Assembly: GCF_002224645.1 (NCBI RefSeq)
Contig: NZ_CP022121.1
Location: forward strand, 3,440,501 to 3,504,500
Reading direction: 5' to 3'
Length of the DNA: 64,000 nucleotides
DNA from: Dehalobacterium formicoaceticum
GTDB lineage: Bacteria; Bacillota; Dehalobacteriia; Dehalobacteriales; Dehalobacteriaceae
Made by a program: the position numbers and the translations under genes. Shown here piece after piece: positions 26,642 to 51,891 of the stretch (its first letter is position 1; each line of letters begins with the position of its first letter). The notes beneath the pieces were generated by a model. It was not told where the DNA came from, ran no database searches, and saw only the letters and a list, made by a program, of their open reading frames with translations.

Positions 26642-26740
26642 TCTAATAGTAGGCCACCGTAGTCATTGAAAAACCGGCCACAATAGATTAACCTACTTGA
26701 GAGGAAATTCAACAGGTAGGGGCTGGGAGAGATGATCACA

Positions 26741-28321: not shown

Positions 28322-29097
28322 GTAACGCGCCGCGCAAGGCGTTTAAGGAAGCGATATTGGAATATAGCAAAGAACTGAGACTCCCTATGATTCGTAAGCA
28401 TTTGGATGAGCAAGTTCGGGAGTCAACGCAGCAGGATGCCAGTTATGAAGCATTTCTGGCGCAGTTACTGGAGAAGGAATGTGATGCTCGTCGGGAAGCC
28501 TCGCGGCATAATCGCATTCGTCTGGCTGAATTTACACATAAAAAGTACCTTGAAGATTTGGTCATCGCGGATTTGCCAGATGATGCCCAAAAGAAGTTAA
28601 AGCAGCTGAAAACATTAGAGTTTATTCAGGAGGGGCGCAACATTATTCTGGCGGGGAACCCGGGAACAGGCAAGACGCATGTGAGTATTGGGCTAGGCTT
28701 AAAGGCCTGCCTGGAGGGATATAAAGTATGGTTTACAACTGTTCCCCTCCTCATTAACCGGATTAAAGAATGCCGAGCAGAGCAAACTCTTCGAGCCTTC
28801 CAGAACCGCTTTGAAAAATATGATTTGGTTATTGCCGATGAAATGGGTTATATATCTTTTGATAAGGAAGGATCTGAATTATTGTTTACCCATTTGTCGC
28901 TGAGGGCTGGTCGCAAATCGACAATCATCACAACCAACTTATCCTTCGAACGATGGGGTGAAATTTTTCAGGATCCCGTGATGACGGCGGCCATGATTGA
29001 CCGGTTGACGCATCAGTCATACATCGTCAACATGAATGGAAACTCGTACCGCATGAAAGAAACGAAGGAGTGGTTACAACAACAGCAACTGGCATGA
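28318..29097 (+). CDS. istB: IS21-family helper ATPase IstB (copy B)
   Basis: Identical in predicted sequence to IstB of copy A, with Walker A GNPGTGKT and Walker B LVIADEMGY. It overlaps istA by ATGA. The tail hairpin after it (29111-29159) differs from copy A by one base that unpairs the stem end. Confidence 0.94.
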   Translation: MSNAPRKAFKEAILEYSKELRLPMIRKHLDEQVRESTQQDASYEAFLAQLLEKECDARREASRHNRIRLAEFTHKKYLEDLVIADLPDDAQKKLKQLKTLEFIQEGRNIILAGNPGTGKTHVSIGLGLKACLEGYKVWFTTVPLLINRIKECRAEQTLRAFQNRFEKYDLVIADEMGYISFDKEGSELLFTHLSLRAGRKSTIITTNLSFERWGEIFQDPVMTAAMIDRLTHQSYIVNMNGNSYRMKETKEWLQQQQLA

Positions 29098-29307
29098 AGA
29101 AAAAAACAATAACCCTGTATAAAGGTTTATCATGTTTTTGATAAACATTTATACAGGATGTAACAAGCGATAGCGCGTTAGCATTCATCGTGAAACAATG
29201 CTCTTTGAAAACTAAATATGCTTATGAAACGACTAAATTTTTTTTTCTTAGTGGCCGAAAATTAAATGACTATATGGCCTAATTTTAAGTTGACAAATAC
29301 AACCCTA

Positions 29308-31170
29308 TTCTTTGTGGATGCAGTTAGCAAAGTTCGAGATAATACCCGACCTGATGGACGTGGAGAATATCTGCGTATTTTTGATGAAGAGTATCAAAGT
29401 GCAATAAAAGGCTACGAAAAACAGCTTGCAAAATATAAAGAGTATTTCCCCGAGCATCAAGATATTTTAAAGGTGCGTGAAGGCTATTTTGCCATCGATA
29501 AAAAGAACAATGAAGTCGAAATTGAAGATTGGGACGACAGCAAAAGCGAGTTAGACGTTAAGGCGAAATCCCAGGAGGATATTGATCGTGGTATCAGCTT
29601 GATTCTTGAAAGAAAAGACGAGCTTATTTCCTTTGAAGAGCCACTGAGCTTCATATTCTCCCATTCGGCACTTCGTGAAGGCTGGGATAATCCAAATGTG
29701 TTTACCCTTTGCACGCTGAAAAATGGAAGCTCCGATATCGCAAAGAAACAGGAAATCGGGCGTGGTTTAAGACTTCCTGTTGATATTACAGGCAACCGCT
29801 GCTTGGATTCCGAAGTCAATGAGCTGACGGTTATTGCAAACGACAGCTATGAGAATTTTTCACGGGTGCTGCAAGAGGACTTCAATCAAAACATGAATTT
29901 CAACAAGAATGAAGTAACTGCCGATATCCTGACTGTTACCCTTGAAAAAGCAGGTGTTCCGAAAGAAAAAATCACTGCCGAACTGGTTGACACCTTTAAG
30001 CAGGAGCTAATGCGTAAAGGCATCTTTGATAGCAATAATATTCTCGGCAAAAACGTGGAGCAAACATCCAAGCTCCTTGAAGGCCTTGTTTTTGAAAATG
30101 AGATACTAAATGAGCACGCTCTATTGCTTAAGGAGAATTTTGCAGAGTACATGGTGCAGAAAGGCTCTCAGCGCATTGAAATTAAAAATGGTGATAACGA
30201 ACCCTATGTGAATACAATCCGTGCTTTTGTATCCCAAGAGGAGTTTCAGCAAATCTACTTTGGGCTTAGCAGAAATCTGACAAAGCGCACTCTTTATAAG
30301 TGCAATGTAGATAAGGACAAGTTTGTTTCCGGCTGCATTGAGGAAATAAACACCTACCTGCAATACTTTAAGGTCAATAAGGCGGTCAATATCGCAACCG
30401 GCAAGGCTGGCTTTAACGATGCCCAAATGTTTGAAATGGTAAAATCAGGCGATAAGACTTTTGATATTGATGTGGGCATGAAGGTTATTCCGAAAAGCGA
30501 TTTTGAGGTCGTTAACTATATCATGCACCACACCATGCTGCCCCGCCTTGCCATTTTTAACATGCTGGCTGGAATTGAAAAAAGGGACGCACTAAACTTC
30601 CAAGACATTCTCGACAGAGTGACACAAAAGATCTTGGTGCGATTAAATGATGCCAAAGCAGCAAATATAACTTCCTACGAAGTCATTGATGGCTATGAGC
30701 TGGACGAAGGGCAGATTTTCGCTACAGACACCATTAGCGAAGAAGATTTTAACGATGAATGGCGTATTTTCAAGTCAAACCCACATAGAAAAAACGCCTT
30801 AAATGAATACTACAAAATGGATAGCAAGGGCGAAAAGGAATTTGCAGAAAAACTTGAAGCAAATGACAATGTTATCTTATTCACCAAACTTAAAAAAGGC
30901 GGTTTCGTAATAGACACCCCTTACGGAAACTACTCCCCCGACTGGGCGGTTGTATGTAGAAAAGATGGACTTGAAGCAGGTGCTGTAGGAATTTACTTCA
31001 TCGTAGAAACAAAAGCCGGAAAACTTGAAAAAGACTTAACTGATGTGGAAGTAAACAAAATACGCTGCGGCGAATTACACTTCAAGGCTGTATCTGAATT
31101 GGTTAAATTCAATTGGGTTAATAGCTATGAGGATTTTAAAACAAAGTTCGGTGTAAAAGAAAGTATGTAA
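29308..31170 (+). pseudogene. res: Type III restriction enzyme Res, 3' fragment
   Basis: This is the second half of Res. It has the helicase C-terminal lobe with SALREGWDNPNVF and motif VI QEIGRGLRLPV, then a C-terminal PD-(D/E)XK-type nuclease region with SPDWAVV and IVETKAG. The open frame extends 42 bases into the IS end (from 29266), so a fusion start inside the IS could give translation. That product would lack Walker A and could not translocate. The original frame is otherwise undamaged, so the insertion is likely recent and precise excision would restore the enzyme. Confidence 0.9.
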
Positions 31171-32067: not shown

Positions 32068-33786
32068 CTATTCGCTCATTTCTTCATAATCAGAATAGCT
32101 CTGGTGGATATTCGAGATTAACAATCTACAATCCGTCTGTGCGCTTTCAAGCAGCTTGCACGTTTCTGATTTACCTAAACGCATATTTCTAATTTCAGAA
32201 ATCTGTGAGTCGATTCCAGCGATACGTGTAAGGTAATTCTCTGATAGGAAATTGCCCAGAGCATTATTGAAATACTTGATGACTTCGTTGGCTGCGTTAT
32301 TAAAACCTGCACGAAGGGTTTCACGGCTCTTCCTCATCTCTTGCTCACGCTTGTCGGCATCCACATCCTCTTTAGCCTGCATTCCAATTGACAGTACCAC
32401 GCCGAAGGCACCAAGCACTTTTCCCGCAACATTGATTCCTTTTACCCATTTGACAGCTTCCCACGGCTTAAAGCTGTGTCCGAAAAAGTGGCCTATGTCT
32501 AAGACCATCTGGTGGACGTTGCTGCCGGTGAACGCTTTAAGCCCATTTGCAGCGGCGTTTGTTCCGGCTGTATTAGCAATAATCTTGCTGCTTCCCTGAG
32601 CCAGAACATCAGATTTGAATATGCGCTCTATAAGTGGATTGCCTTTCCCATTTTTGCTTTCCAATCGGAATTTGAGAGTCTGCGAAAAATCCGATTTATA
32701 GAATTCATCCAACTGTGCTTGGCAGTCTTCAGATAACTCAGTGATTCTTCTTGTAATGCTATCAACACAATCGGCTGTGATGCGATCAACCTCGTTATAT
32801 GCAGCGGTAATTGCATCGTTAGCATCATCTTCATTGTCGTAGTTATAAACCGAATTAGCAATTTCACGGCCTTTTTCACGAATTTGAGAAGCCGCTTCTT
32901 CAAAGATGGATTTGACCGACGACTCAATTCTCCATTGAGTCGTTGAAATGATATAGCGTTCTTGACGTAAATGCTCTTCGAGAGCATCAATGTCGCTGTC
33001 TCCGGTTGAAGGTTGATATTCCTCCAAGGCTTTTTGCAGAAACTCGAATAACCTATACAAAACCGTGGTCATTTGTGAGGGAATTCCTTTGTCACGGACA
33101 AAGGCGTTTAGCGTTGAAACAAGAGCATCATAATTGCTACGCGCTATGAGTTCTTCCGCAATTTCGCTGTCTGGCTCTGAAAGGCTATCTAAATATGACT
33201 CAGCATCTACAAAAACAGTCCGCAGTTGTGCCGGGGTATACGGAGCTGTTACTTTCTCCAAATCTTTTAGCTTTATTTCTTGATTCTCAATCGTATTACC
33301 GATGCCCGCCATTTTGTTTACAATCAAAATCATCTCGCCAGCTTTATCTTTTTCAAGCAATAGCTTGCGGAAATTTTGACCTATAAAATCATCGAACAAC
33401 TCTTGAGTGACCACATAAACAAGCATATCGGCATCTGCGATTGCCTGATATGAGATTTCATCGTGGTCGGGTCGGAGCGTCGTATGGATGCCCGGAGTGT
33501 CAATTACTTCAATTCCATTCCAGTCATAGGTGTGGGCTTCCTGGGTTGTAATCCCTGCGCCAATAGCTATGTCTGAAATACCTGTTAAAGCTTTTAGAAT
33601 GGTTGACTTGCCAGCACTATATTGTCCAGCAAAGACAAGGCTTACTGGTTTATTGCCTTCAAATATTTCTTGAGGCAAACCACTCCCGTCGAATCCAATT
33701 TTTCCAAGCAAATCTCGGATACTTTCGAGTAACTTTTTGCTTTTAGCCGTCCATACGGCAATGTATACAGAGTCTTGTTCTCTCAT
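32068..33786 (-). CDS. Dynamin-like GTPase, LeoA-like (Eleos-type), 572 aa
   Basis: The G1 motif is GQYSAGKST at about residues 53-61, G3 is DTPGI and G4 is NKMA. After the G domain come long helical stretches and a hydrophobic segment near residue 450 (INVAGKVLGAFGVVLSIGM), the layout of bacterial dynamin-like proteins that bind or remodel membrane. Length and pairing with a second, larger dynamin-like GTPase 14 bases upstream resemble the LeoA/LeoBC pair of the Eleos anti-phage system. The match is from recall of architecture, not alignment. It is the last gene of a minus-strand operon and is intact. Confidence 0.7.
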   Translation of the reverse strand: MREQDSVYIAVWTAKSKKLLESIRDLLGKIGFDGSGLPQEIFEGNKPVSLVFAGQYSAGKSTILKALTGISDIAIGAGITTQEAHTYDWNGIEVIDTPGIHTTLRPDHDEISYQAIADADMLVYVVTQELFDDFIGQNFRKLLLEKDKAGEMILIVNKMAGIGNTIENQEIKLKDLEKVTAPYTPAQLRTVFVDAESYLDSLSEPDSEIAEELIARSNYDALVSTLNAFVRDKGIPSQMTTVLYRLFEFLQKALEEYQPSTGDSDIDALEEHLRQERYIISTTQWRIESSVKSIFEEAASQIREKGREIANSVYNYDNEDDANDAITAAYNEVDRITADCVDSITRRITELSEDCQAQLDEFYKSDFSQTLKFRLESKNGKGNPLIERIFKSDVLAQGSSKIIANTAGTNAAANGLKAFTGSNVHQMVLDIGHFFGHSFKPWEAVKWVKGINVAGKVLGAFGVVLSIGMQAKEDVDADKREQEMRKSRETLRAGFNNAANEVIKYFNNALGNFLSENYLTRIAGIDSQISEIRNMRLGKSETCKLLESAQTDCRLLISNIHQSYSDYEEMSE

Positions 33787-33800
33787 TTTGATTGTCTCCT

Positions 33801-35756
33801 TTATTTCATAATCAGAAGTTCTGTAATTTGCTGTGCCATTCGAATACGGTTCTGCGTATTGGCGTCGATGGCATCAAGAAAAGGAATGTGTGCGATTCTC
33901 GGTACATCATCGATATACTGGATATTGATGCTCTGGATATCAACTGAATTCCTGTCGGCTTTACGCCATATTGCCTGCAACAGCATTGATTTGATGTTGT
34001 TATTCTTTATGATGTACCATACCTTTTCTTTTAGAAGGTTAGACAAGGCTTTGGCTGCGTCATTTGGGAATACTTTCCCATACTCAAGTACCAACATAAC
34101 TGCGTATCCTGGTATTCTTGCGATACTTGAAATGTGCCATTCCAAACCCTCATAGCCCAAATACGCCAATGCTTCTTTAATAACGGCAGCGTTTATCTCC
34201 TGCAACTTATTATTAAGAGCTATGGCGAATTCACGCTGCGTTTTTGACAATGTGAATACTGAGTTAATAACATCATCAATGTTACGACTCATAGGGTACA
34301 ACTGTTTTTTCAGCAATTCATCATACAAAACGTCGAGTAGCTTCTTCCGTAGCCCAACCACCATCTTATCGATATGGTCAGAGAGCTTCTTCTCTAATTT
34401 CTGACGAGCGTTACGGACTTTCTTTTCTCGGTCATTAAAAAGGAACGAACCCATCCATCCCACTAAACCGACTCCCAGTCCAATCCACCCTATAGGATTC
34501 CAAACATTAAATAAGCTGGCTATCATAAGCCCGCCGCTAAGTAACGTGGTAGTCCAGTTCCATATGCGTTTTCCATCTACGAGCATATGCATATTGATTG
34601 AACGGTCAGAGAACACAGAGTGAGAGAAATTTATCTCAGCATTAATTTCACGGCTAATTTCTCGCAGTTCTGTTTCACACTCTTTGCCGAGTTGTTTTAA
34701 CAAATCAGAAGACCGCTCTTCAATCTTACGACTTTTCAAAATCTTATTCCATTCGGCGCTGGCATTTGAGTTGTCATAGTTATCCTCTGCGAAAGAAGCT
34801 ATTTCACGTTTTAGCTCGCCAGAAATTGATGTCAGCAATGTCTCAATCCTGCTCTTGCTGTCGGTTTCAAAATCGTCTGTCCATTTTTTTAGTTTTCGCT
34901 TCTTGCCAACAAGGACAGACCCTTGCTCACTGTTTTTAGCACTCTGACTAAACAGGGTTTCCAAGGCATCTACTACTGGGACAACAACAATATCTGTGAA
35001 AGCCTTCAGCTTGTAAAAGCTTCCGTTTTTGCACACTTCGCTAATAATTAAATTCTCGACATAACTAAATCGAGACAAGTCGTAGAGTTCATAGCTGCTT
35101 TCTTTAAACTCATTTTGCTGTGAAAGAAAGGCGGACTTCAAATGCACATATGCAAACCGAATATTACGCCAATCCTGTCCATATTGATTACCAAAATCAA
35201 AGAACTGCTTCTTAATTGTCTCCAAGCGCTCATTATCAAATTTCTTCTGAACATCACGCTTGAACATTTTTAAACTGCTGGCTGCATTGATATCAGCCTT
35301 GATGTTAATAAGGCAAATTACAGGCTTGCCGAGTTCAAGGATTCTGTTCAGACATTCCGCTTCACAAGCTTGGGGTGCGTCGTCAGTTATTAAGAACAAT
35401 ATAAGGTCGCTTTTTTTTGCAGCATCAAAAGCAATGTTCTCGTCGTCTTCGCCTTCAAATGCGGCTATCCCCGGGACATCAGTAATCTGTAAATTTTTAT
35501 ATATGTAAGTTCTAACATCACGAGTTGTTCGTTGGGCACCTTTTCCTATGGAATCACCATTTCCGTGGATTAAAATTTCCATCAGAGTGGACTTGCCCGC
35601 CATTGTTCTTCCAAAAAGCGTTATTGAAAAAGATGTTTTTGATAATGCGTTTATATCTTCAACAAGCTGCTGCGGAAGAATCTCAAAGTTAGAACGGATT
35701 AATGATAATTGTGATGCCAAGCTGCTGGTAGTTGCATTGTCATTAAAATTACTTAC
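33801..35756 (-). pseudogene. Dynamin-like GTPase, LeoBC-like: main (3') part
   Basis: It encodes the G domain (GRTMAGKST, DVPGI, G4-like NIKAD), a helical body and a membrane hairpin (LLSGGLMIASLF ... IGWIGLGVGLVG). The longest frame with its own start begins at TTG 35720 without a ribosome site. The open frame continues upstream to the 35757-35761 duplication, where a 9-kb insertion interrupts it. Joining 44968-44774 to 35756-33801 on the minus strand gives a stop-free 716-aa protein (...IINLQ-VSNFNDNATTSS-LASQLSL...), with G1 at about residue 114. The gene is therefore split, and the apparent 639-aa protein is not the native form. Confidence 0.85.
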
Positions 35757-35761
35757 TTGAA
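35757..35761 (+). repeat. Target-site duplication TTGAA, left copy
   Basis: TTGAA directly precedes the ISEcp1-like left end. The same bases, within the longer shared string ACTTGAA, recur at 44774-44778 beyond the far end of the inserted unit. Confidence 0.75.
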
Positions 35762-37451
35762 CCTAGATTCTACGTGCAATCTACTCATATAACCCTTTAA
35801 GCAAGTATTTATAATCGTTAAGCCAAAACCATTCTTTCACCCAATGGGTGAAAGAAAATTGCAGCAAATTAACATCTATTTGTATGTTTTTTGTCTTGTT
35901 TGATGGGTAAAAATGTAACAAATAGAGGTGTTGTGAAGGAGATGGCTTATGATAAATAAAATCGAGTTTAAGGCTAAAAATCTTACCTCAAATGCAGGAC
36001 TTTTTCTGATGCTAGAGAACACTAAAAATAACGGCATTTTTGAGATGATTGAAAATGACCTCACTTTTGAAAGCGCTTCTGTAAACAAGATTAAAATGAA
36101 TCATGTTAAAACCATGCTCTCTGGTCATTTTATAGGCATAGATAAGCTCGAACGTTTAAAACTTTTAAAGAATGATCCCCTTGTTCGTGAATTCGATATT
36201 TCTGTTAAAGAGCCTGAAACCGTGTCGCGTTTTTTAAGCAACTTCAGCTTCAAAACGACGCAAATGTTCAGAGAAATCAACTTCAAAGTGTTTAAAAAGC
36301 TACTTTCTAAAAGTGGATTGACATCCATCACTATTGATATCGATAGCAGTGTCATTAATGTAGAAGGCCACCAAGAAGGCGCTACTAAAGGTTACAATCC
36401 TAAAAAGCTGGGCAATCGATGCTACAATGTCCAGTTTGCCTTTTGTGATGAACTCAAAGCCTATGTCACTGGTTTTGTTAGAAGTGGTAATGCATACACC
36501 GCAAATGGTGCTGCTGAACTGATTAAAGAGATTGTTGCCACTCTTAAAGCTCAAAACTTGGAAATCTTTTTCCGTATGGATAGTGGCTACTTCGATGAAG
36601 AAATCATTGAAACAATCGAGTCTCTTGGTTGCAAATACTTAATTAAAGCTAAAGCTTATGCAACACTTGTCTCCCAAGTGACCGCTTCCTCTGCTGTGTT
36701 TCTTAAAGGTATAGACGGCAGAGAAACCGCTGAGCTGCTTATAAAATTGGATAAGTGGAAGAAAAAAAGAAGATTTGTCGTGTCTCGCGTTCTGAAACCC
36801 GAAAAAGAAAGAGCTCAGTTAAGCCTGTTAGAAGGTTCAGAGTACGACTATTTTTTCTTTGTCACCAATACAGACCTAGAGTCAGAAGCGGTGGTTCTCT
36901 CCTATGAAAAGCGTGGCAATGCTGAAAACTATATCAAAGAAGCAAAATACGACATGTCAGTAGGCCACTTGCTTTTGAAATCATTCTGGGCAAATGAAGC
37001 AGTATTCCAAATGATGATGCTTTCATACAATCTGTTTTTACTCTTCAAATTTGACTACTTGGATGTGTCTGAATATAGGCAGCAGATAAAGACATTTCGC
37101 TTGAAATACGTTTTTCTTGCGGCCAAAATTATCAAAACAGCTAGGTCTGTGATTATGAAGCTCTCAAGCAAATATCCTTATCAAGAGGTGTATAAAAAAT
37201 GTATCTGCTTAGAGTCGTAACGATTGATAAATTGGCGCTTGAATCGCTTGAATGAATCGAGTGGTTTATTAATTGAACCTAGAATTGTGATATTTGCAAC
37301 TTAATTGAGAATAATGGGTATATCTTATTCAAATGTGTTGAGGAAGGGGTGTGAATAATGTTAAAATGTAGGAGTAACTACTTGAATTCTTCGTAGGTTC
37401 AGCGAAAATATCGATTTTTAATGGTTTTCGTAAAACAACGTGGAATTTAGG
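35762..37451 (+). mobile_element. ISEcp1-like insertion sequence (IS1380 family, 1690 bp)
   Basis: The left repeat CCTAGATTCTACGT (35762-35775) and right repeat ACGTGGAATTTAGG (37438-37451) equal the terminal repeats I recall for ISEcp1. Between them is one transposase gene. No duplication flanks this short form: TTGAA on the left, TAGTA on the right. That agrees with the true right boundary lying further away at 44773. Confidence 0.88.
35949..37220 (+). CDS. tnpA: IS1380-family transposase, ISEcp1-like (423 aa)
   Basis: A full-length DDE transposase. The core has ITIDIDSSVINVEG (first Asp), FFRMDSGYFDEE (second Asp) and the C-terminal KRGNAENYIKEAKYD carrying the Glu. The sequence resembles the ISEcp1 transposase over its whole length as far as I can recall it. 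ATG 35949 follows GAAGGAGATGG. 37221-37451 is the IS right end and contains no gene. ISEcp1 is best known for mobilising resistance genes in Gram-negatives, so a close relative in a clostridial ICE is notable. Confidence 0.93.
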   Translation: MINKIEFKAKNLTSNAGLFLMLENTKNNGIFEMIENDLTFESASVNKIKMNHVKTMLSGHFIGIDKLERLKLLKNDPLVREFDISVKEPETVSRFLSNFSFKTTQMFREINFKVFKKLLSKSGLTSITIDIDSSVINVEGHQEGATKGYNPKKLGNRCYNVQFAFCDELKAYVTGFVRSGNAYTANGAAELIKEIVATLKAQNLEIFFRMDSGYFDEEIIETIESLGCKYLIKAKAYATLVSQVTASSAVFLKGIDGRETAELLIKLDKWKKKRRFVVSRVLKPEKERAQLSLLEGSEYDYFFFVTNTDLESEAVVLSYEKRGNAENYIKEAKYDMSVGHLLLKSFWANEAVFQMMMLSYNLFLLFKFDYLDVSEYRQQIKTFRLKYVFLAAKIIKTARSVIMKLSSKYPYQEVYKKCICLES

Positions 37452-37762
37452 TAGTAATCAAGTCATTGGGATTATTTGGGTTTGGTGTAGCCTTTATCTT
37501 TATGCAGTCGACAATTATTGCCACAGCACAGGAGAAATTACCTCATATGAAGGGTACAGCAATGGCTCTTGCAGCATTCAACATGTTTTTAGGAGCAGGT
37601 GTCGGTACGTCAATCAATGGTTGGGTAATGGAAACAATTAACACAACGATTATCTTTAATATTGCATCATATTTATTTTTAATAGTTGGTATACTAGCAG
37701 CAATATTTGTTTCACAATTTGAAGCACAAAAAAAGAAGTCCTATGCAAGTGAAACTTTATAA
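37452..37762 (+). pseudogene. MFS transporter, C-terminal fragment
   Basis: The frame is open from the IS right repeat onward and encodes about 103 residues with three hydrophobic segments: GLFGFGVAFIF, ALAAFNMFLGAGVGTSING and FNIASYLFLIVGILAAIF. It ends in a basic cytosolic tail. This matches the last helices of a drug/sugar MFS exporter (the KGTAMALAAFNMFLGAGVG pattern). The first three quarters are missing at the ISEcp1-like right end, so it cannot work. Confidence 0.8.
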
Positions 37763-37791
37763 TCAAATTATTTAGATGGGAGATGTAAAAA

Positions 37792-38463
37792 ATGATTAAA
37801 GCAGTTTTTTTCGATATGAATGAAACGTTACTTAATCTGGAACCCCTTAAAACGCATTTTGATAAGCATTTTAAAGATGAGTATGTCCTAAAGTATTGGT
37901 TTACAAAGTTGCTTCAGACGTCTCTGGTAATGGCTAGCATGAACGCGTATAAGAATTTTGGAGAACTAGCAGGTGTCGTGTTAGAAAGTGTGTTCCATGA
38001 AGGTGGAAAATCCTTATCAGAAGATGAAAAAGCAAGTATATTGAATACTTTTAGAAGTATGCCAGCTTTTGAAGATGTCCCTGAAGCGCTGAAGATGCTT
38101 AAAGATAATAATTTAAAAGTTATTGCAGTATCCAATTCATCACTAACGATGATGGAAGAACAGCTGACAAATGCAGGGATTATCAAATATTTTGATGGGT
38201 ATTATTCAGTAGATGCAGTAGCCCGCTACAAACCCTTTGAAGATATATATAAATTCGTAGCAAATGAAGAACTATTGGATGTCTCTGAAGTCGTAATGGT
38301 GGCTTCTCATGATTGGGATTTGTTTGGTGCTAAAAGTGCTGGGTTGAAAACAGCTTATATCAAGCGTAAAGACGTCATTTATAATCCGTTTTATTCGGAC
38401 CCTGATATAGATGATGACCATATGGTTAAATTAGCTGAAAAAATTGTAAGGTTAAAAGACTAA
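37792..38463 (+). CDS. HAD-superfamily hydrolase, haloacid-dehalogenase type (223 aa)
   Basis: HAD motif I is FDMNETLLNL with the nucleophilic Asp at residue 8 (the D-x-N-x-T variant seen in type II 2-haloacid dehalogenases). Motif II is AVSNSS, a lysine lies in RYKPFEDIY, and motif III is VASHDWDLFGAKSAGL. Length suits (S)-2-haloacid dehalogenase-like enzymes. The natural substrate is unknown. It is the first complete passenger gene, 29 bases after the MFS fragment. Confidence 0.85.
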   Translation: MIKAVFFDMNETLLNLEPLKTHFDKHFKDEYVLKYWFTKLLQTSLVMASMNAYKNFGELAGVVLESVFHEGGKSLSEDEKASILNTFRSMPAFEDVPEALKMLKDNNLKVIAVSNSSLTMMEEQLTNAGIIKYFDGYYSVDAVARYKPFEDIYKFVANEELLDVSEVVMVASHDWDLFGAKSAGLKTAYIKRKDVIYNPFYSDPDIDDDHMVKLAEKIVRLKD

Positions 38464-38544
38464 ATGAGATATAACTCTATTGAGAGATGAAATAACAAGC
38501 AAGAAAGATATGTATTAAACATAGTGAATAACAAGGAAGATACC

Positions 38545-38718
38545 ATGAGTTTAAATCGTGAATTAGCAAAGTTAAAGGAAGAAAATTTAAAGAAAGTATC
38601 AAAGGAATTATCAGATGTATTAGTAAAAGATGTTGAAATTCAGGCAAAGAGAGGTACTACAAAGAATGCTTTAAAAACAGGTTATAAAATTCAAGCGTTT
38701 GAGTTACAAAATGCGTAG
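38545..38718 (+). pseudogene. N-terminal remnant of an AhpC/TSA-like peroxiredoxin
   Basis: The 57-residue frame begins MSLNRELAKLKEENLKK and ends ALKTGYKIQAFELQNA-stop. This resembles the leader and first strand (K.GDKAPDF.LPNA) of redoxin-domain peroxiredoxins. The protein then stops where the family would continue to the catalytic cysteine. 38719-38847 shows no continuing frame. It is either a decayed gene or an unrelated small protein, and I favour decay. Confidence 0.5.
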
Positions 38719-38847
38719 GAAGAATGATTCATTCAGATGAATTACTTTCTAAACTAAAGGTTCATAGATTATCAGTTTTTATAGAGGCGATTGATGTCTT
38801 TATTGCAATATAATAGATAAAATAATGTTCATAAAGGGGAGATAACA

Positions 38848-39510
38848 TTGAAAATAGAAATTTGGTCAGATTATGTATGTCCATTTTGTTATATTGGTGA
38901 AAGAAAGCTTGGACAAGCGCTTGAACAATTAAAGATGACAGATGACGTTGAGATTATATTTAAATCTTTCGAATTAGATCCTAATGCGCAAAAACAATAT
39001 GAGGGAGACATTCATCAATTGATGGCAAAGAAATACGGCATAAGTATTGAACGTGCAATTGAAACCAATAACAACATTGTTAGAAGTGCAAGAGAAGTAG
39101 GGTTGGTGTTTAACTTTGATGACTTAAAACGGACAAATACATTTGATGCCCACCGTTTATCTTATTATGCAAAAGAAAAGGGTAGATTAAGTGCATTTAC
39201 TGAAGCTGTCATGAGAAGCTATTTTATTGAAGCTTTAGATATCTCCAATCTAGAAACACTGTTAGACCTTGCGGTTGAAGTGGGGTTAGATAGAGAGAAA
39301 GCAAAAGGCATTCTAACTTCGTCGGCTTATAGTCAAGAAGTAAGGACAGCTGAACAGAATGCTCATTCAAAAGGAATCAATGGTGTGCCGTATTTCATCT
39401 TTGATGAAAAGGAAGTTATTTATGGTGCGCAACCAGTTGAAGCATTTGTAAATGTCATTGAAGCAGTTAAAAATAATGTGCCAACAACGATAAATGAAAC
39501 AAATTTTTGA
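38848..39510 (+). CDS. DsbA-family thiol oxidoreductase, FrnE-like (220 aa)
   Basis: A thioredoxin-fold protein starting at TTG 38848 after GGGGAG. The redox motif CPFC lies at residues 11-14 (DYVCPFCYIGE) and the cis-Pro loop is NGVPYFIFDE. The helical insert with NTFDAHRL is characteristic of FrnE/2-hydroxychromene-isomerase-like members. There is no signal peptide, so it acts in the cytoplasm, probably as a disulfide isomerase or oxidoreductase. It groups with other redox genes in the passenger block. Confidence 0.88.
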   Translation: MKIEIWSDYVCPFCYIGERKLGQALEQLKMTDDVEIIFKSFELDPNAQKQYEGDIHQLMAKKYGISIERAIETNNNIVRSAREVGLVFNFDDLKRTNTFDAHRLSYYAKEKGRLSAFTEAVMRSYFIEALDISNLETLLDLAVEVGLDREKAKGILTSSAYSQEVRTAEQNAHSKGINGVPYFIFDEKEVIYGAQPVEAFVNVIEAVKNNVPTTINETNF

Positions 39511-39584
39511 TTTTTTATCGGAAGTAAAGAGAAAAATTTCTTTTTTAACAGATAAAACAAAAGGCTTTCAATTCATTAAGTCAG

Positions 39585-39614
39585 TATCAAAAATGATAGT
39601 ACCTATTAAAAATA
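39585..39614 (+). promoter_or_regulatory. Putative HxlR operator upstream of the PNPOx-like gene
   Basis: This 30-base element matches 40571-40600, in front of the hxlR gene, at 26 of 30 positions (TATCA..AATGATAGTA.CTAT.AAAAATA). It sits just upstream of the -35 hexamer at 39621. Confidence 0.65.
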
Positions 39615-39620
39615 GATGTA

Positions 39621-39649
39621 TTAACAAAAAAAGCTGTGAATGCTATAAT
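39621..39649 (+). promoter_or_regulatory. Sigma-A-type promoter of the PNPOx-like gene
   Basis: TTAACA (39621-39626), a 17-base spacer and TATAAT (39644-39649). It directly follows the putative HxlR operator. Confidence 0.7.
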
Positions 39650-39701
39650 CATATTGAGAATAAATAAAATATGTTGCATAAGACAAAAGGAGGATTTTTT
39701 T

Positions 39702-40088
39702 ATGAAAGCAATAGTAGAATTTTTAAACAAGAGTAAGGTGTTTTATTTAGCTACAAATAGTGAAGGAGCACCTGATGTAAGACCAATGGGAATTGCAATT
39801 CCATATAATGACAAATTATACTTTGTAGCAGCTAAACCAATGAATGTATTTAAGCAATTAGAAGCAGATAATAAAGTATCTATTTCTGCTTATGACGGAG
39901 AGAAATTCTTAAGACTTTACGGCACTGCAGTACTTGAAGACTCAGAAGAAACAGTAAACACATTCCTAGGGATGGACGAGAAAATCGCAACCATGTTCCC
40001 AGCGGATATTATGGCGCCGTTCTATTTAAAAGATGTAACAGCAAGTATTTGTTCATTTACAGAAGAACCAGAAGTATATAACTTCTAA
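39702..40088 (+). CDS. Pyridoxamine 5'-phosphate oxidase-like flavoprotein (128 aa)
   Basis: A split-barrel FMN-binding fold with FYLATNSEGAPDVRPMGIA near the N-terminus, LYFVAAKPMNVFKQLEADNKVSI in the middle and FLRLYGTA later. ATG 39702 follows AAGGAGGA. The size fits the small general-stress/nitroimidazole-resistance-like branch of the family rather than PdxH itself. The substrate is unknown. It has its own promoter next to an HxlR-type operator, so it is probably induced by a redox or electrophile signal. Confidence 0.85.
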   Translation: MKAIVEFLNKSKVFYLATNSEGAPDVRPMGIAIPYNDKLYFVAAKPMNVFKQLEADNKVSISAYDGEKFLRLYGTAVLEDSEETVNTFLGMDEKIATMFPADIMAPFYLKDVTASICSFTEEPEVYNF

Positions 40089-40120
40089 ATATCGTGCAGT
40101 ACAGGTAGCCATGTTTAAAG

Positions 40121-40160
40121 AAGGTTTAGCCTCTGATAGTACACGCTAGGCTAAACCTTT
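40121..40160. terminator. Bidirectional terminator between the PNPOx-like gene and hxlR
   Basis: AAGGTTTAGCC and GGCTAAACCTT form an 11-bp stem with A-rich and T-rich flanks. It serves two converging genes. Confidence 0.8.
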
Positions 40161-40176
40161 TATTTTAAGCGATTAA

Positions 40177-40557
40177 TTAGTTGTCTTGATTGATCATGCC
40201 CATGTGTGTGAGATACTCGACTCCCCAAATATTCATAGCAGACAAGACATTGCCAAACTCGATTCCTAGTGGTGACAATTTGTATTCCACTTTAGGAGGT
40301 ATGACGTTGTATACTTCCCGAACAATGACTTCATCTTGTTCCAATTCTCTCAATTGTCTCGTAAGTGTTGCCTGAGTTGCAGGAATAAGTCTACTTAGTT
40401 CATTAAATCGTTTGGTACCTTGTTGTAGATGCCAGAAAATTAGAAGTTTCCATTTTCCTTTTATGACTTTTTGTGCCATACAATATGGACAGAGTGCTTC
40501 TCTTACTTCTGGACTGATTTGGCAAGAGCCACATTCATCTAAGTATTTTTTAAACAT
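40177..40557 (-). CDS. HxlR-family transcriptional regulator (126 aa)
   Basis: A winged-helix regulator with conserved cysteine-rich start (CGSCQISPEVREALCPYCMAQ, noted as a region), then WKLLIFWHLQQGTKRFNELSRLIP and TQATLTRQLRELE, the standard HxlR core. Cys residues near the N-terminus suggest thiol-based sensing, as in YodB/HypR. It is transcribed away from the flavodoxin gene. Its upstream region carries the same operator as the PNPOx-like gene, so autoregulation plus control of neighbouring redox genes is likely. GAGGTGAT precedes the ATG. Confidence 0.9.
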   Translation of the reverse strand: MFKKYLDECGSCQISPEVREALCPYCMAQKVIKGKWKLLIFWHLQQGTKRFNELSRLIPATQATLTRQLRELEQDEVIVREVYNVIPPKVEYKLSPLGIEFGNVLSAMNIWGVEYLTHMGMINQDN

Positions 40558-40570
40558 TTCATCACCTCGG

Positions 40571-40600
40571 TATCATTAATGATAGTATCTATCAAAAATA
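40571..40600 (-). promoter_or_regulatory. Putative HxlR operator in the hxlR/flavodoxin intergenic region
   Basis: This is the partner of 39585-39614. The core TGATAGTATCTATCA is nearly palindromic. It is 14 bases from the hxlR start codon. Confidence 0.65.
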
Positions 40601-40685
40601 ATTATATTTTAAAAACGGATATATATGTAATAATTATACTGAAAATAATTTAAAAAACAAGTCACATATTAAAAAGGAGGAGGAA

Positions 40686-41099
40686 ATGATGAAAATAGCG
40701 GTGCGATATTATTCGAAAACGGGTAATACAAAAAAGTTAGCTGAAGCCATTGGAAGGGCTATAGGTGTTAAAGCTTTTCCACTTTCACAACCTGTAGACC
40801 CAGATACAGATATTTTATTTTTAGGAAGCTCTGTTTACGCAGCAGGCGTGTCCGGAGAAGTTAAAACCTTTATAAATACTTTAGACAAAAATGTTGGTAA
40901 AGTAGTTAATTTTAGTTCTGCGGCGATTATCGAGTCCACATACAATCAAGTTAAAAAATTAGTTAAGAAAAGAGGTATCACGATGTCTGATAAAGAGTTT
41001 CATTGTAGAGGGAGCTTTACAGTAATGCATCGTGGAAAACCAGATAAAGATGACTTGAAATCGGTAGCGACGTTTGCGAAGGAAGTTACAAATGGCTAA
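40686..41099 (+). CDS. Flavodoxin-like protein (137 aa)
   Basis: The FMN phosphate-binding loop is YYSKTGNTKKLAEAIG at the N-terminus. FLGSSVYAAGVSGEVKTF supplies the second FMN loop. It is an electron carrier or flavin reductase component. It starts after AGGAGGAGG and overlaps the cbiA start by 8 nt, so both are made together. A reduced corrinoid is needed for some cobyrinate steps, so a flavodoxin beside cbiA makes sense. Confidence 0.85.
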   Translation: MMKIAVRYYSKTGNTKKLAEAIGRAIGVKAFPLSQPVDPDTDILFLGSSVYAAGVSGEVKTFINTLDKNVGKVVNFSSAAIIESTYNQVKKLVKKRGITMSDKEFHCRGSFTVMHRGKPDKDDLKSVATFAKEVTNG

Positions 41100-42489
41100 C
41101 TTAGATAGAATGAATTGTCCAAGATTTGTCCTGGCAGGTACAAATAGTGGTGTAGGTAAAACGACAATCACCCTAGGTCTTTTAAATGGGTTTCGACGGA
41201 AAGGAATTAATGTTCAGCCATTTAAAAGTGGGCCAGACTATATCGATCCTGCATTTCATACATTTGTTACTGGAAACCCATCGCGAAATTTAGATACATG
41301 GCTTATACAGGAAAACCCTATAGAATATTTAATGCAACAAACTGGAGTGAATAAAGATCTTTCTATTATCGAAGGCGTAATGGGTTTTTATGATGGGCAT
41401 ATTGTTCATAAAAATGTTGGCAGTACTGCTCATTTATCAAAAGTATTAAAAGCACCAGTTGTACTCATCATTAATGGTAGTGGTATTTCTACAAGTGCCG
41501 CAGCAATTGTACACGGCTTTAAGCATTTTGATAATGATGTGGACGTAGCAGGTGTGATTATTAATCAGGTCAACAGTAAACGTCATTATGACATATTAAA
41601 AGAAGCTATTGAAGAAATGACGGGCGTAAAGTGTTTTGGCTATTTAAAGAAACACCCTGACATTAATTTGGATAGTCGTCATCTAGGTTTAATACCCTCT
41701 TATGAAGTAGAAGTGCTACAAGACAAAATCGACTTGATTAGTAATTTGATGGAAGACTCTATTGATTTTGATGGTTTACTGGAACTTGGGCAAAGTGCGG
41801 CACCATTAAAAAGAGTAGATTTAGGCATAAAAAAAGTTGTTGATGAAGTAAGAATTGGTGTGCCGTTGGATAAGGCCTTTAACTTCTACTATCAAGACAA
41901 CTTAGAACTACTAGAAGCACTTGGAGCGAAACTAGTGTATTTTAGTCCTTTAGAAGATAAGGCAGTTCCAGCATCCATAGATGGTATTTACTTTGGAGGT
42001 GGTTTTCCAGAAGTATTTGTTAAAGAGCTATCGGCTAATAAACAAATGCGAACATCTATTAAAGAGTTTATTGAAGCAGGTGGCCCAGTTTATGCGGAAT
42101 GTGGTGGACTTATGTATATGTGTAACCGGATAGTGGATCTTGAGGATAATGCTTATGAAATGGTTGGTATCTTGGAAAATGACTCTGTCATGACAAAAAA
42201 GTTACAACGATTTGGTTATGTAGATGTCAGAATCAATAAGGAATCGATTATTGGATCAGATATGACCAATTTTGAAGCTCATGAGTTTCATCGCTCAAAA
42301 CTGACGGAGCACTTGGATGACCAGACAGTTTATAGTGTTGAAAAAGACAGAGGTAATGGCAATATCAATAAATGGTCATGTGGTTATACCTACAAAAATT
42401 TCCTTGGTGGGTATGCACATATTCATTTTTACAATAATCTAGAAATTCCTAGGAATTTTTTATATACATGCGAAAAAAGAAAAAAATGA
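41092..42489 (+). CDS. cbiA: Cobyrinate a,c-diamide synthase (465 aa)
   Basis: The N-terminal dethiobiotin-synthase-like ATPase domain has FVLAGTNSGVGKTTITLGL (P-loop), PFKSGPDYIDPAFH and IIEGVMGFYDG. The C-terminal glutamine-amidotransferase domain has FPEVFVKELS and the nucleophile cysteine in YAECGGLMYM. The end carries FEAHEFHRS and GYAHIHFYNN. This is the canonical CbiA/CobB layout and length. It amidates the a and c side chains of cobyrinate with glutamine and ATP. Other cobalamin genes are absent here, so it may serve salvage, or be a related nickel-tetrapyrrole enzyme. Confidence 0.9.
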   Translation: MANLDRMNCPRFVLAGTNSGVGKTTITLGLLNGFRRKGINVQPFKSGPDYIDPAFHTFVTGNPSRNLDTWLIQENPIEYLMQQTGVNKDLSIIEGVMGFYDGHIVHKNVGSTAHLSKVLKAPVVLIINGSGISTSAAAIVHGFKHFDNDVDVAGVIINQVNSKRHYDILKEAIEEMTGVKCFGYLKKHPDINLDSRHLGLIPSYEVEVLQDKIDLISNLMEDSIDFDGLLELGQSAAPLKRVDLGIKKVVDEVRIGVPLDKAFNFYYQDNLELLEALGAKLVYFSPLEDKAVPASIDGIYFGGGFPEVFVKELSANKQMRTSIKEFIEAGGPVYAECGGLMYMCNRIVDLEDNAYEMVGILENDSVMTKKLQRFGYVDVRINKESIIGSDMTNFEAHEFHRSKLTEHLDDQTVYSVEKDRGNGNINKWSCGYTYKNFLGGYAHIHFYNNLEIPRNFLYTCEKRKK

Positions 42490-42502
42490 ATTAAAGGAGT
42501 AA

Positions 42503-42781
42503 ATGATGAGAACATACAAAACGGATAATTATAAGTTTAATCAACATAGACAATGTGAATTTTTTCCTTGTCACAAAGGAGTAGAGGAAGACAAGTTTAA
42601 CTGCCTTTTCTGTTATTGTCCATTGTATATGTTAGGTAACGAATGTGGCGGTAACTTCAAAGTGACCAATGGGGTAAAAGATTGTTCCGGCTGTACAAAA
42701 CCTCATGCTGAAGGTAGTTATGACTTTGTCATGTCAAAAATAAAGATGGTTATTCAAAAAGGATCAAGTTTTATTAAGTAA
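42503..42781 (+). CDS. Cysteine-rich small-domain protein, cobalamin-associated (92 aa)
   Basis: Cys positions cluster as CEFFPCHKG, NCLFCYCPLY, NECGG and DCSGCTKPH, the signature of the cysteine-rich small domain often found beside or fused to corrinoid-synthesis genes. It is presumably metal-binding. ATG 42503 and 42506 are both possible after AAAGGAG. It is 13 bases downstream of cbiA and 18 bases before the flavoprotein gene, in the same operon. Confidence 0.85.
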   Translation: MMRTYKTDNYKFNQHRQCEFFPCHKGVEEDKFNCLFCYCPLYMLGNECGGNFKVTNGVKDCSGCTKPHAEGSYDFVMSKIKMVIQKGSSFIK

Positions 42782-42799
42782 TTCAATTATAGGAGGTGT

Positions 42800-43465
42800 A
42801 TGAATATGATTTTAGGTATATCAGGTAGTCCGAGGGAAAATGGTATTACCGCTCACGCTATCAAAGAAATTCTTTCTCAGAGCAAGGAGGACACACAGTA
42901 TATCTCCCTATTTGGGAAACATATAGGAGGTTGCATCAGTTGCCTTGGTTGTACGAAAGACAATAAATGCGTTGTAGAAGATGATTTTCAAGAGATTGCA
43001 GAAGCTATGGCTCAAGCAGACGCTATTGTTCTAGGCGTACCTAATTATTATGATGTACCCAATGCTTTGACACATGCGATGTTAGAACGATGTTTCTGCT
43101 TTCGTCACCAAGGCACCTTCTCCTTAAAAGATAAACCGATTGTCATTCTATCGACTGGTTATTCTAAGGATGAAGAAAATAGTCAAGTACTGAATATAGT
43201 AGAACATTTTGCGAATAAAAATAAAATGAAAGTAATTTCAAAATTTTTAGTGGGTGCTTTTTCGCAATGTTACTCATGTAAATATGGTATGACTTGTGCT
43301 GACGGAAATATTGTGAAAGATAACGGTTTTGTTGATAAAATTACAACAGAGATGTTACCACCCAAATTTAAACAGCAAGAAAATTCTATTTTAAAATGTC
43401 ATCGTGCGGCAGATACTATCACCAAACTGTTAGCCATGTATAAAGAGCGTAAAGGAGTGCAATAG
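42800..43465 (+). CDS. NADPH-dependent FMN reductase/iron-sulfur flavoprotein-like (221 aa)
   Basis: The flavodoxin-fold start MILGISGSPRENGITAHA carries the FMN phosphate loop. CISCLGCTKDNKC supplies a compact Cys cluster typical of iron-sulfur flavoproteins, and VLGVPNYYDVPNAL the second FMN loop. A second Cys cluster (CYSCKYGMTC) lies near residue 150. It is probably an electron-transfer reductase for the linked corrinoid operon. It follows AGGAGG and is intact. The nitroreductase remnant begins two bases after it. Confidence 0.85.
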   Translation: MNMILGISGSPRENGITAHAIKEILSQSKEDTQYISLFGKHIGGCISCLGCTKDNKCVVEDDFQEIAEAMAQADAIVLGVPNYYDVPNALTHAMLERCFCFRHQGTFSLKDKPIVILSTGYSKDEENSQVLNIVEHFANKNKMKVISKFLVGAFSQCYSCKYGMTCADGNIVKDNGFVDKITTEMLPPKFKQQENSILKCHRAADTITKLLAMYKERKGVQ

Positions 43466-43466
43466 C

Positions 43467-43619
43467 ATGGAACTAAAAGAAGTTGTCAGCAAGAGACAGA
43501 GTATCCGTCGATTTAAAGATACGGAGATCTCAGATAAAGATATTATTGAATTGGTTGAAGTTGCGACTAAAGCACCTTCATCAATGAATATTCAAAATGG
43601 ATCTATGTCAATATCTTAG
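43467..43619 (+). pseudogene. Nitroreductase-family protein, N-terminal fragment
   Basis: MELKEVVSKRQSIRRFKDTE is the classic nitroreductase N-terminus with the FMN-binding RQSIRRF. KAPSSMNIQN follows, and then the frame runs into the IS3 end and stops after 50 residues. The family is about 170-200 aa, so at least two thirds are missing. It was the last gene of the flavodoxin-cbiA operon before IS3 entered. The AAAGGAG site is intact, so a short peptide may still be made. Confidence 0.85.
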
Positions 43620-43638
43620 ACACAAAAAGCTGAACTTT

Positions 43639-44457
43639 TCATGCAATTTTTCTAGCTAAATCTTCACAGTTTTGTGGTGAGATATAACCAATGCTGCTAT
43701 GTATCCTTTTTCTATTGTACCAAGCTTCTATATATTCAAATATCGATAATCTTGCTGTGTCAAAATCAAAATATTTAACAAGGTGGACTTCCTCTTTTTT
43801 CAAAGAAGCATGAAATGACTCTATACAAGCGTTGTCGTAAGGACATCCCTTTGCACTAAAGGAATGGGTAATAAGTTTAGTACTATCTATGTATTGCTTG
43901 AAAGCGGAGCTTGTATACTGACATCCTAAATCACTATGAAGTATTAATGGAGTGCTTGGTTTTTGAAGCTGTACAGCATTCTTTACAGCCCGTAGCGCTA
44001 ATGGGGTATCAATAGTTTTAGACATAGCATGTCCTATTATTTTCTTACTATATAGATCCATAACCGAAGCTAAGTAACACCAACCATCTTTAATTGTGTG
44101 GATGTAAGTAATATCAGTTACCCACTTTTCATTAATAGTAGCTGTTTCAAAATCCCTTTTTAAAAGGTTTTCTTTCTCTACTATTTTCCTTTTAGATGAT
44201 GCTGGTCTAAATTTTTTTATTATTATAGATTTTATTCCCAACTTCTTCATTAAACGTTGAGTTCTTTTTAAACTAATAATTATCCCCAATGCTTTTAGTG
44301 ATTCATTTATTTTGGGTGCTCCATAACGGTTTTTGCTCTCTTTGTGGATATTTATGATTTCTTTTTCTATATTTTTATTTTCTAATTCTCGATCACTTGG
44401 TTTTTTATTTAAATACTTGTAATAAGAGCTCCTAGCTACCTTTAAAACCTTACACAT
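43639..44457 (-). CDS. IS3-family transposase OrfB (DDE, IS150-like)
   Basis: An HTH_21-like start (GAPKINESLKALGI) is followed by the rve integrase core: KWVTDITYIHT (Asp), LHSDLGCQYTS (Asp) and the region with ACIESFHASLKKE (Glu). The C-terminus is YNRKRIHSSIGYISP. In IS3 elements it is made as an OrfAB fusion by -1 frameshifting. The slippery A6G is at 44538-44544, and the OrfB frame is open from there. The catalytic core is complete, but the element lacks one end. Confidence 0.92.
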   Translation of the reverse strand: MCKVLKVARSSYYKYLNKKPSDRELENKNIEKEIINIHKESKNRYGAPKINESLKALGIIISLKRTQRLMKKLGIKSIIIKKFRPASSKRKIVEKENLLKRDFETATINEKWVTDITYIHTIKDGWCYLASVMDLYSKKIIGHAMSKTIDTPLALRAVKNAVQLQKPSTPLILHSDLGCQYTSSAFKQYIDSTKLITHSFSAKGCPYDNACIESFHASLKKEEVHLVKYFDFDTARLSIFEYIEAWYNRKRIHSSIGYISPQNCEDLARKIA

Positions 44458-44510
44458 GAGCTTAATATCATGATATTTCTTGTTGTTAGTGATGAATTCA
44501 AATATAGTAG

Positions 44511-44771
44511 TTACTTCCTTGCGAATATGCCCATAGCCTTTTTTAATATTTCAATTTCTTCCTCAAGTTTTGCATTTTTCTTTAATAAATTTTTATGTTC
44601 CACTGCTGTTATAGTTGTATTTTTATCTACAGAAACAGGTTTATTTTTCTTTACCCAGCCAGTTATTGTTGATTTTGATACGGCATATTCACTATTCAAC
44701 TCTGCTAGGCTCTTTCCAGAATTATAAAGTTCTACTATTGTTTTTTTAAATTCATCTGTATATTGTTTTTG
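44511..44771 (-). pseudogene. IS3-family OrfA, start codon lost
   Basis: The frame reads QYTDEFKKTIVELYNSGKS then LAELNSEYAVSKSTITGWVK, the IS3 HTH, followed by a leucine-zipper-like EEIEILKKAMGIFARK. It lacks an ATG: the first triplets visible (PSSQKQYT) run into the junction at 44773. Only a few residues and the terminal repeat are gone. The internal ATG at 44699 would skip the HTH. Confidence 0.85.
44538..44544 (-). promoter_or_regulatory. IS3 programmed -1 frameshift site
   Basis: AAAAAAG on the minus strand, in the overlap between orfA and orfB frames. It is the usual slippery heptamer of IS3 elements. Confidence 0.7.
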
Positions 44772-44773
44772 AC

Positions 44774-44778
44774 TTGAA
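44774..44778 (+). repeat. Target-site duplication TTGAA, right copy
   Basis: Matches 35757-35761. The shared string can be extended to ACTTGAA (44772-44778), so the exact right end of the unit is uncertain by two bases. Confidence 0.75.
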
Positions 44779-44968
44779 GGTTAATAATTTCACTCTGTAA
44801 CTTTTCGGATACATTATTGACTACACGATTTAGTAATGATACTGCATCGTTAGCGAGTATATGTCCACGCTTCGCAAAAGCCTTACATTCAGCCAAGGCC
44901 TCTGATAAATCGTCAGGCGACTTGGTTTGTTGTGTTAAATTCATAAAATCCAATATACCTCCCATCAT
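44774..44968 (-). pseudogene. Dynamin-like GTPase, LeoBC-like: 5' part
   Basis: 65 codons (MMGGILDFMNLTQQ ... SEKLQSEIINLQ) form a helical, polar N-terminus with no domain of its own. The frame continues 13 codons into the IS3 remnant before stopping. Across the insertion it joins in frame to the main GTPase body at 35756. The native start is uncertain: ATG 44968 has no ribosome site, while GGGAGG inside the frame favours TTG 44953 or ATG 44944. It lies 57 bases downstream of the membrane-protein gene in the same operon. Confidence 0.8.
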
Positions 44969-48585: not shown

Positions 48586-48638
48586 ATGGCTGTATTTGAG
48601 ATATAGATATTTTCCAATATTATATTGGAGGTATGACT

Positions 48639-51604: not shown

Positions 51605-51891
51605 GATCATATCTCCTCAAATAACTCTTACTTCTAACTCTTTCTTCCATAAGATTCTATAGAAACGGTTTCTTCAATTTCTTTAGATAGCATATACCTT
51701 AGAATCATCGTAGCAACTAAACATAAAATAGTCAAAAATAATCAGAACAATTAATTTTATCCAATAAAATGAAGGTCGTCAATTGATGGAAGTATGACTT
51801 TTAATGGAAGCGAGACCTTGGTGCGCCTGATGAATAGAAAAAGATCAGGGTATCAAACTATCATGTAAAGGATTTTGGGAGGTTGATATCC

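What the first reader, a model, noticed from the sequence alone, without database searches (positions are those of the whole stretch)
33801..44968. A dynamin-like GTPase gene is split by a 9-kb ISEcp1-type transposition unit, and removing it restores a 716-aa protein
Seen: the minus-strand frame ending at 44774 (...SEIINLQ) and the frame at 35756 (VSNFNDNATTSS...) join without a stop when 35762-44773 and one TTGAA copy are removed. The combined length, 2151 bases, divides by three. The flanks share ACTTGAA. Annotation pipelines would report two unrelated genes 9 kb apart. The restored gene is the missing upstream partner of the intact GTPase at 32068.
Basis: partly seen in the sequence, partly recalled or inferred. 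Interest (0 to 1): 0.85.

Follow-up and report, generated by a model that had tools for sequence, protein, structure and literature searches.

The report
Jumping DNA unit splits membrane-protein gene
A jumping element closely related to ISEcp1, the one that spreads penicillin- and cephalosporin-resistance genes in gut bacteria, carried 7 kb of foreign metabolic genes into a dynamin-like gene of a pollutant-eating anaerobe; almost the same element sits next to resistance genes in other bacteria.

Summary
The window is from Dehalobacterium formicoaceticum (genome length identical to strain DMC). Bases 35762-44773 (9,012 bp) form an ISEcp1-type one-ended transposition unit. It has an IS1380-family IS (35762-37451) whose 14-bp ends are letter-for-letter those of ISEcp1 and whose transposase is 85% identical, then 7.3 kb of low-GC cargo (MFS fragment, HAD, DsbA-like, CobB and others), ending inside a decapitated IS3 orfA. 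TTGAA flanks both ends. The target is a LeoBC-like dynamin gene beside an intact LeoA-like gene. Three natural uninterrupted homologues cover both pieces; in the two closest they abut without a missing or extra residue.
New here: a prophage-like contig carries the same IS (1,689 of 1,691 bases identical) in a second complete unit, 3,104 bp, TAATA on both sides, carrying erm(A) and splitting a copZ-like gene. Two Enterococcus faecium plasmids hold the last 382 bp of the IS, 100% identical, just upstream of aph(2'')-IVa. So one nearly invariant Gram-positive cousin of ISEcp1 captures whatever lies downstream. The mechanism is known; host range, cargo and the erm(A)/aph(2'')-IVa link are notable. 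Corrections: the interrupted protein was probably about 708, not 716, residues.

The parts
32068..33786 (-). Intact LeoA-like dynamin-family GTPase, downstream partner of the split gene
   Evidence: PADLOC LeoA 1.4e-130; Pfam DLP_helical 1.1e-11
33801..35756 (-). C-terminal 651 codons of the LeoBC-like dynamin gene (includes the P-loop GRTMAGKST)
   Evidence: PADLOC LeoBC 3.7e-104; 81-82% identical to residues 57/58 to the end of L004/L003 proteins
35757..35761 (.). Left copy of the 5-bp target site duplication, TTGAA
   Evidence: sequence; L003 and L004 align across the junction with one copy
35762..35775 (+). IRL CCTAGATTCTACGT, identical to the ISEcp1 IRL
   Evidence: ISEcp1 IRL as printed in PMC7864471
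35949..37220 (+). IS1380-family transposase, 85.7% aa identity to ISEcp1
   Evidence: NCBIfam transpos_IS1380 5.1e-95; tblastn
37438..37451 (+). Native IRR ACGTGGAATTTAGG, identical to the ISEcp1 IRR; end of the 1,690-bp IS
   Evidence: PMC7864471
37452..37762 (+). Cargo: C-terminal fragment of an MFS transporter gene, cut at the IRR
   Evidence: weak Pfam MFS_1 match
37792..43465 (+). Cargo: HAD hydrolase (37792-38463), DsbA/FrnE-like (38848-39510), a 150-aa protein that looks like a PNPOx-type flavin protein (39636-40088, by eye), HxlR-like regulator (40177-40557, minus strand, by eye), flavodoxin-like (40686-41099, by eye), CobB (41074-42489), cysteine-rich small domain (42503-42781), FMN reductase (42800-43465)
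   Evidence: Pfam, NCBIfam; GC 34.3% against 40.1% for the window; no other copy in the genome
43639..44773 (-). IS3-family element without its 5' end: orfB (43639-44457) and orfA that has lost its start at the unit's right end
   Evidence: NCBIfam transpos_IS3 1.8e-88; orfA frame
44760..44773 (+). Alternative right end actually used, ATATTGTTTTTGAC (6 of 14 matches to the IRR)
44774..44778 (.). Right copy of the target site duplication, TTGAA
44774..44968 (-). N-terminal piece of the LeoBC-like gene (probable start at 44944)
   Evidence: 68-75% identical to residues 1-57 of the homologues, E about 1e-23

Best explanation
An IS1380-family insertion sequence, a Gram-positive cousin of ISEcp1, had inserted in or beside an MFS transporter gene of a low-GC donor. 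In a later transposition its transposase paired the true IRL with a degenerate sequence 7.3 kb beyond its own IRR, inside an IS3 element. The resulting 9,012-bp unit inserted into the LeoBC-like dynamin gene of a D. formicoaceticum island that also holds a restriction system, and duplicated 5 bp (TTGAA). The gene is cut after codon 57 of the homologues. The GTPase domain is kept but separated from its start and the N-terminal segment, so the LeoA/LeoBC pair is most likely inactive. Shown: structure, ends, TSD, intact homologues, single copy, a second independent unit of the same IS. Inferred: order of events, foreign donor, loss of function.
For: IRL and native IRR identical to those of ISEcp1. 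Transposase 85.7% identical. TTGAA flanks the whole 9-kb unit, not the IS alone. Homologues are uninterrupted with exact adjacency. Cargo and IS are single-copy in the genome and no equivalent was found in 43 genomes of the class; cargo GC is 34% against 43.17% reported for the genome (PMC5597755). A second unit with the same IS, in L016 5814-8917, has TAATA on both sides and splits a copZ-like gene whose pieces match profile positions 5-107 and 109-160. Published ISEcp1 units use right ends as poor as these: 5-6 of 14 for two blaCMY-2 units in PMC7864471.
Against: No empty site of the same species was available; the homologues are at 78% DNA identity. The right end matches the IRR no better than many random 14-mers of the cargo (about 13% score 6 or more), so the right end itself is not independent evidence. 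No transposition or expression was measured. A truncated protein started at TTG 35720 cannot be excluded.
Confidence: 0.95

Rival explanations
1. The IS alone jumped into the gene and the remaining 7.3 kb was added later by other insertions or recombination.
For: The IS has its own intact IRR at 37451, and the cargo contains a further IS.
Against: There is no TTGAA after 37451; the bases there are TAGTA and run straight into an MFS fragment. TTGAA recurs exactly where the target gene resumes at 44774. The L016 unit has the same layout.
Confidence: 0.03
2. The 65-aa frame is a separate small gene and the 639-aa frame is a complete GTPase starting at TTG 35720.
For: The 639-aa frame is open and holds the P-loop and most of the LeoBC profile (47-594 of 601).
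Against: Three homologues carry both pieces in one gene, 678-702 aa; the PADLOC LeoBC profile includes the upstream part.
Confidence: 0.01
3. The gene is split as described, but the truncated GTPase is still made by internal initiation and works without the N-terminal segment; split LeoB/LeoC genes exist in ETEC. (A rival to the loss of function only.)
For: Natural split forms of LeoBC are described (PMC4159319), and the frame is intact with no other decay in 651 codons.
Against: The ETEC split is elsewhere: LeoC is 206 aa and holds the N-terminal part. Here 57 residues are separated by 9 kb with no evident start signal at TTG 35720.
Confidence: 0.12

Closest known systems
ISEcp1 transposition units (IS1380 family; e.g. 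ISEcp1-blaCTX-M, ISEcp1-blaCMY-2)
   Same: Identical 14-bp IRL and IRR, 5-bp duplication, IRL paired with a degenerate alternative right end downstream, capture of adjacent genes in varying lengths
   Different: Different IS at 76.5% DNA and 85.7% transposase identity; in a strict anaerobe of the Bacillota; 7.3 kb of metabolic cargo without a recognisable resistance gene
LeoABC / LeoBC-LeoA dynamin-like pairs (ETEC; PADLOC LeoA and LeoBC)
   Same: Tandem pair, profile matches across nearly full length
   Different: Firmicute proteins matched by profile only, not compared directly with the ETEC ones; the interruption is by a mobile unit, not the natural LeoB/LeoC split
Resistance region with aph(2'')-IVa, arr and lsa(E) on E. 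faecium plasmids LR135429 and CP045013
   Same: 382 bp of IS 3' end with IRR, 100% identical, directly upstream of the resistance genes
   Different: The IS is cut at its left side, near IS1216, so no unit boundary can be shown there

Membership tests
ISEcp1-type (IS1380 family) transposition unit | IS1380-family DDE transposase | tested here: met
   NCBIfam transpos_IS1380 5.1e-95, cut-off 180, score 318.6
ISEcp1-type (IS1380 family) transposition unit | ISEcp1 terminal repeats | tested here: met
   both 14-mers identical to those printed for ISEcp1 in PMC7864471
ISEcp1-type (IS1380 family) transposition unit | 5-bp duplication around IS plus downstream DNA | tested here: met
   TTGAA at 35757 and 44774; TAATA around the L016 unit
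ISEcp1-type (IS1380 family) transposition unit | alternative right end with resemblance to the IRR | tested here: inconclusive
   6 of 14, within the range of random cargo 14-mers and of two published ISEcp1 cases
ISEcp1-type (IS1380 family) transposition unit | mobilises in the laboratory | not testable with these tools
   needs a transposition assay
ISEcp1 itself (same IS) | at least about 95% DNA identity (the customary threshold for one IS, from memory) | tested here: not met
   76.5% over 1,377 bp; it is a sister IS, not ISEcp1
LeoBC-like dynamin | GTPase domain plus LeoBC profile | tested here: met
LeoBC-like dynamin | membrane remodelling or phage defence activity | not testable with these tools
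   no experiment

The most novel reading that the evidence does not exclude
A single, almost unmutated Gram-positive cousin of ISEcp1 is spreading now through anaerobic Bacillota, enterococcal plasmids and prophages, and builds one-ended units with whatever is downstream, including erm(A) and aph(2'')-IVa. ISEcp1 of Enterobacterales would then be one branch of a lineage of gene-capturing elements that is older or centred in Gram-positive bacteria.
Probability: 0.4. Interest if true: 0.7.

Novelty: new member of a known kind. Interest (0 to 1): 0.45.

Why it matters
ISEcp1 is one of the main vehicles of blaCTX-M and blaCMY-2, but no paper found here discusses where it came from or whether it has working relatives in Gram-positive bacteria. 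This window shows a sister element with the same ends doing the same thing in a strict anaerobe, and the follow-up shows a near-identical copy with erm(A) in a complete unit and its right end next to aph(2'')-IVa on E. faecium plasmids. That makes the question of a Gram-positive ISEcp1 lineage directly testable by surveying public genomes. The split gene also means that D. formicoaceticum's LeoA/LeoBC pair should be treated as probably broken in annotation.

Tried and rejected
Donor of the cargo: not found. DNA search of 43 genomes of the class and 398 of the phylum gave only short matches, the longest 67-68% over under 400 bp. The best in plasmids was Ilyobacter polytropus pILYOP01, which has similar genes (HAD, MFS, DsbA, flavodoxin, cysteine-rich domain) but in other order, 70% over 22%. 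Extra copies of the IS in the genome: none. The transposase was sought at E <= 1e-100 in 398 genomes of the phylum: only this one. Strain EZ94 as a same-species empty site: its paper was read but its sequence is not held here. Papers naming a Gram-positive ISEcp1 relative with erm(A) or aph(2'')-IVa: none found with the terms used; two searches failed on term syntax and the library lacks most subscription journals. The IS1380 element ISSsu5 in enterococcal Tn7086 (PMC13055272) was noted but its sequence was not compared. The 65-aa piece alone did not hit PADLOC, so its assignment rests on the homologues. No structure prediction was run because sequence homologues settled the point. An outward promoter at the IS right end: consensus hits no more than in shuffles.

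Full report
What the window is. The genome that holds the window is one contig of 3,766,545 bp, the same length as the published chromosome of Dehalobacterium formicoaceticum DMC (PMC5597755). The identification rests mainly on that equality; the small class of mostly reduced genomes around it fits.

The observation. I tested the claim that they are two halves of one gene against relatives. Two MAG contigs, L003 (Syntrophomonadaceae) and L004 (Desulfotomaculaceae), encode the protein in one piece of 702 and 701 aa, each followed by the LeoA-like partner of 572 aa. A model empty site with one TTGAA aligns to both without any gap at the junction at 78% identity. At protein level the N-terminal piece ends at homologue residue 57/56 and the C-terminal piece starts at 58/57. 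A third, distant homologue (L031) in another family of the phylum also has the N-terminal segment. None starts at the TTG at 35720. The homologues start at the Met that corresponds to base 44944, so about 708 aa rather than 716 is likely.

The unit. The transposase at 35949-37220 is IS1380 family and 85.7% identical to ISEcp1. The left end CCTAGATTCTACGT and the native right end ACGTGGAATTTAGG at 37438-37451 equal those printed for ISEcp1 in PMC7864471. The IS is therefore 1,690 bp (35762-37451). Its IRR is followed at once by the last ~100 codons of an MFS gene, and the DNA runs on through HAD, DsbA-like, HxlR-like, flavodoxin-like, CobB, a cysteine-rich small-domain protein and an FMN reductase to an IS3 element. 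That IS3 lacks its 5' end: orfA is cut within its first codons exactly at 44773, where TTGAA and the interrupted gene resume. The duplication thus surrounds the IS plus 7.3 kb of neighbour DNA, which is how ISEcp1 units are described (PMC12589106). The right end scores 6 of 14 against the IRR, a score that about 13% of cargo 14-mers reach or exceed; two published blaCMY-2 units have 5 and 6. So the right end neither supports nor contradicts the mechanism.

Origin of the cargo. Neither the IS nor the cargo has another copy in the genome and no counterpart was found in the class. GC is 34.3% for the cargo and 30.7% for the IS3 part against 40.1% for the window and 43.17% for the genome. A low-GC donor elsewhere in the Bacillota or Fusobacteriota is the likely source (inference); the nearest gene set seen is on Ilyobacter polytropus pILYOP01, in a different order. 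The cargo CobB is the third CobB-like protein of the genome, 40-45% identical to the other two, so it need not be an essential acquisition.

A second unit. The viral-contig collection holds one contig, L016 (IMGVR_UViG_3300011842_000029, 48.6 kb, with tape-measure, tail and capsid-like genes by eye), with the same IS: 1,689 of 1,691 bases identical, the two differences lying at 37437 and 37442, next to and in the IRR. Downstream lie a 5' fragment of ilvD and an erm gene that passes the curated cut-off for Erm(A) (498 bits, cut-off 475). TAATA stands at 5809-5813 and 8918-8922. The flanks carry the two pieces of a CopZ-type 2Fe-2S protein gene, matching profile positions 5-107 and 109-160. This is a complete second unit of 3,104 bp with other cargo, other target and other right end. 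Three further viral contigs end inside the same IS, identical over 98-127 bases. Two E. faecium plasmids hold its last 382 bp at 100%, IRR included, followed by a DinB-family gene, aph(2'')-IVa and arr. The near-absence of mutations across such different hosts indicates recent spread (inference).

What was hit. The split gene matches PADLOC LeoBC, the intact neighbour LeoA. PADLOC lists these among known and candidate defence proteins; LeoA of ETEC is a dynamin-like protein implicated in vesicle release (PMC4159319). In the same island a type III restriction gene is split by an IS21-type element present in 20 identical copies. Two such genes broken by two unrelated elements suggests weak selection to keep them in this strain; that is inference.

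Verdict. As a mechanism it is an ordinary ISEcp1-type event. What raises its interest is that the actor is a distinct Gram-positive sister of ISEcp1 for which two complete units and one resistance-associated remnant could be documented. No earlier description of this IS as a gene-capturing element was found, but the literature search was limited and ISfinder was not available.

Noticed in passing
window 25409-31170: A type III restriction enzyme gene is split by an IS21-type element (istA 26732-28321, istB 28318-29097); ACCCTAT occurs at both edges, the frame continues across, and the element has 20 identical copies in the genome.
   Followed up: partly
window 48633-51610: A large serine recombinase gene runs tail to tail into the 3' end of an rlmD/rumA-like gene (by eye), which suggests that the island is integrated there; the 240 bp around the junction have no second copy in the genome.
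   Followed up: partly
L016 5814-8917: Complete unit of the same IS carrying erm(A), splitting a copZ-like gene in a prophage-like contig, TAATA on both sides.
   Followed up: yes
L016 7490-7503 and window 37437-37451: The only two differences among 1,691 bases of the two IS copies are in or next to the IRR; the L016 IRR is the closer match to the IRL. Unexplained.
   Followed up: no
L028 6001-8215, L029 6001-8215: E. faecium plasmids with the 3' 382 bp of this IS at 100% identity upstream of aph(2'')-IVa, arr and lsa(E).
   Followed up: partly
L024 8184, L025 12241, L026 126: Three further viral contigs that break off inside the identical IS; L026 is beside restriction-modification-like genes.
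   Followed up: partly
window 41074-42489: The cargo cobB is the third CobB-like gene of the genome (others 40-45% identical).
   Followed up: partly
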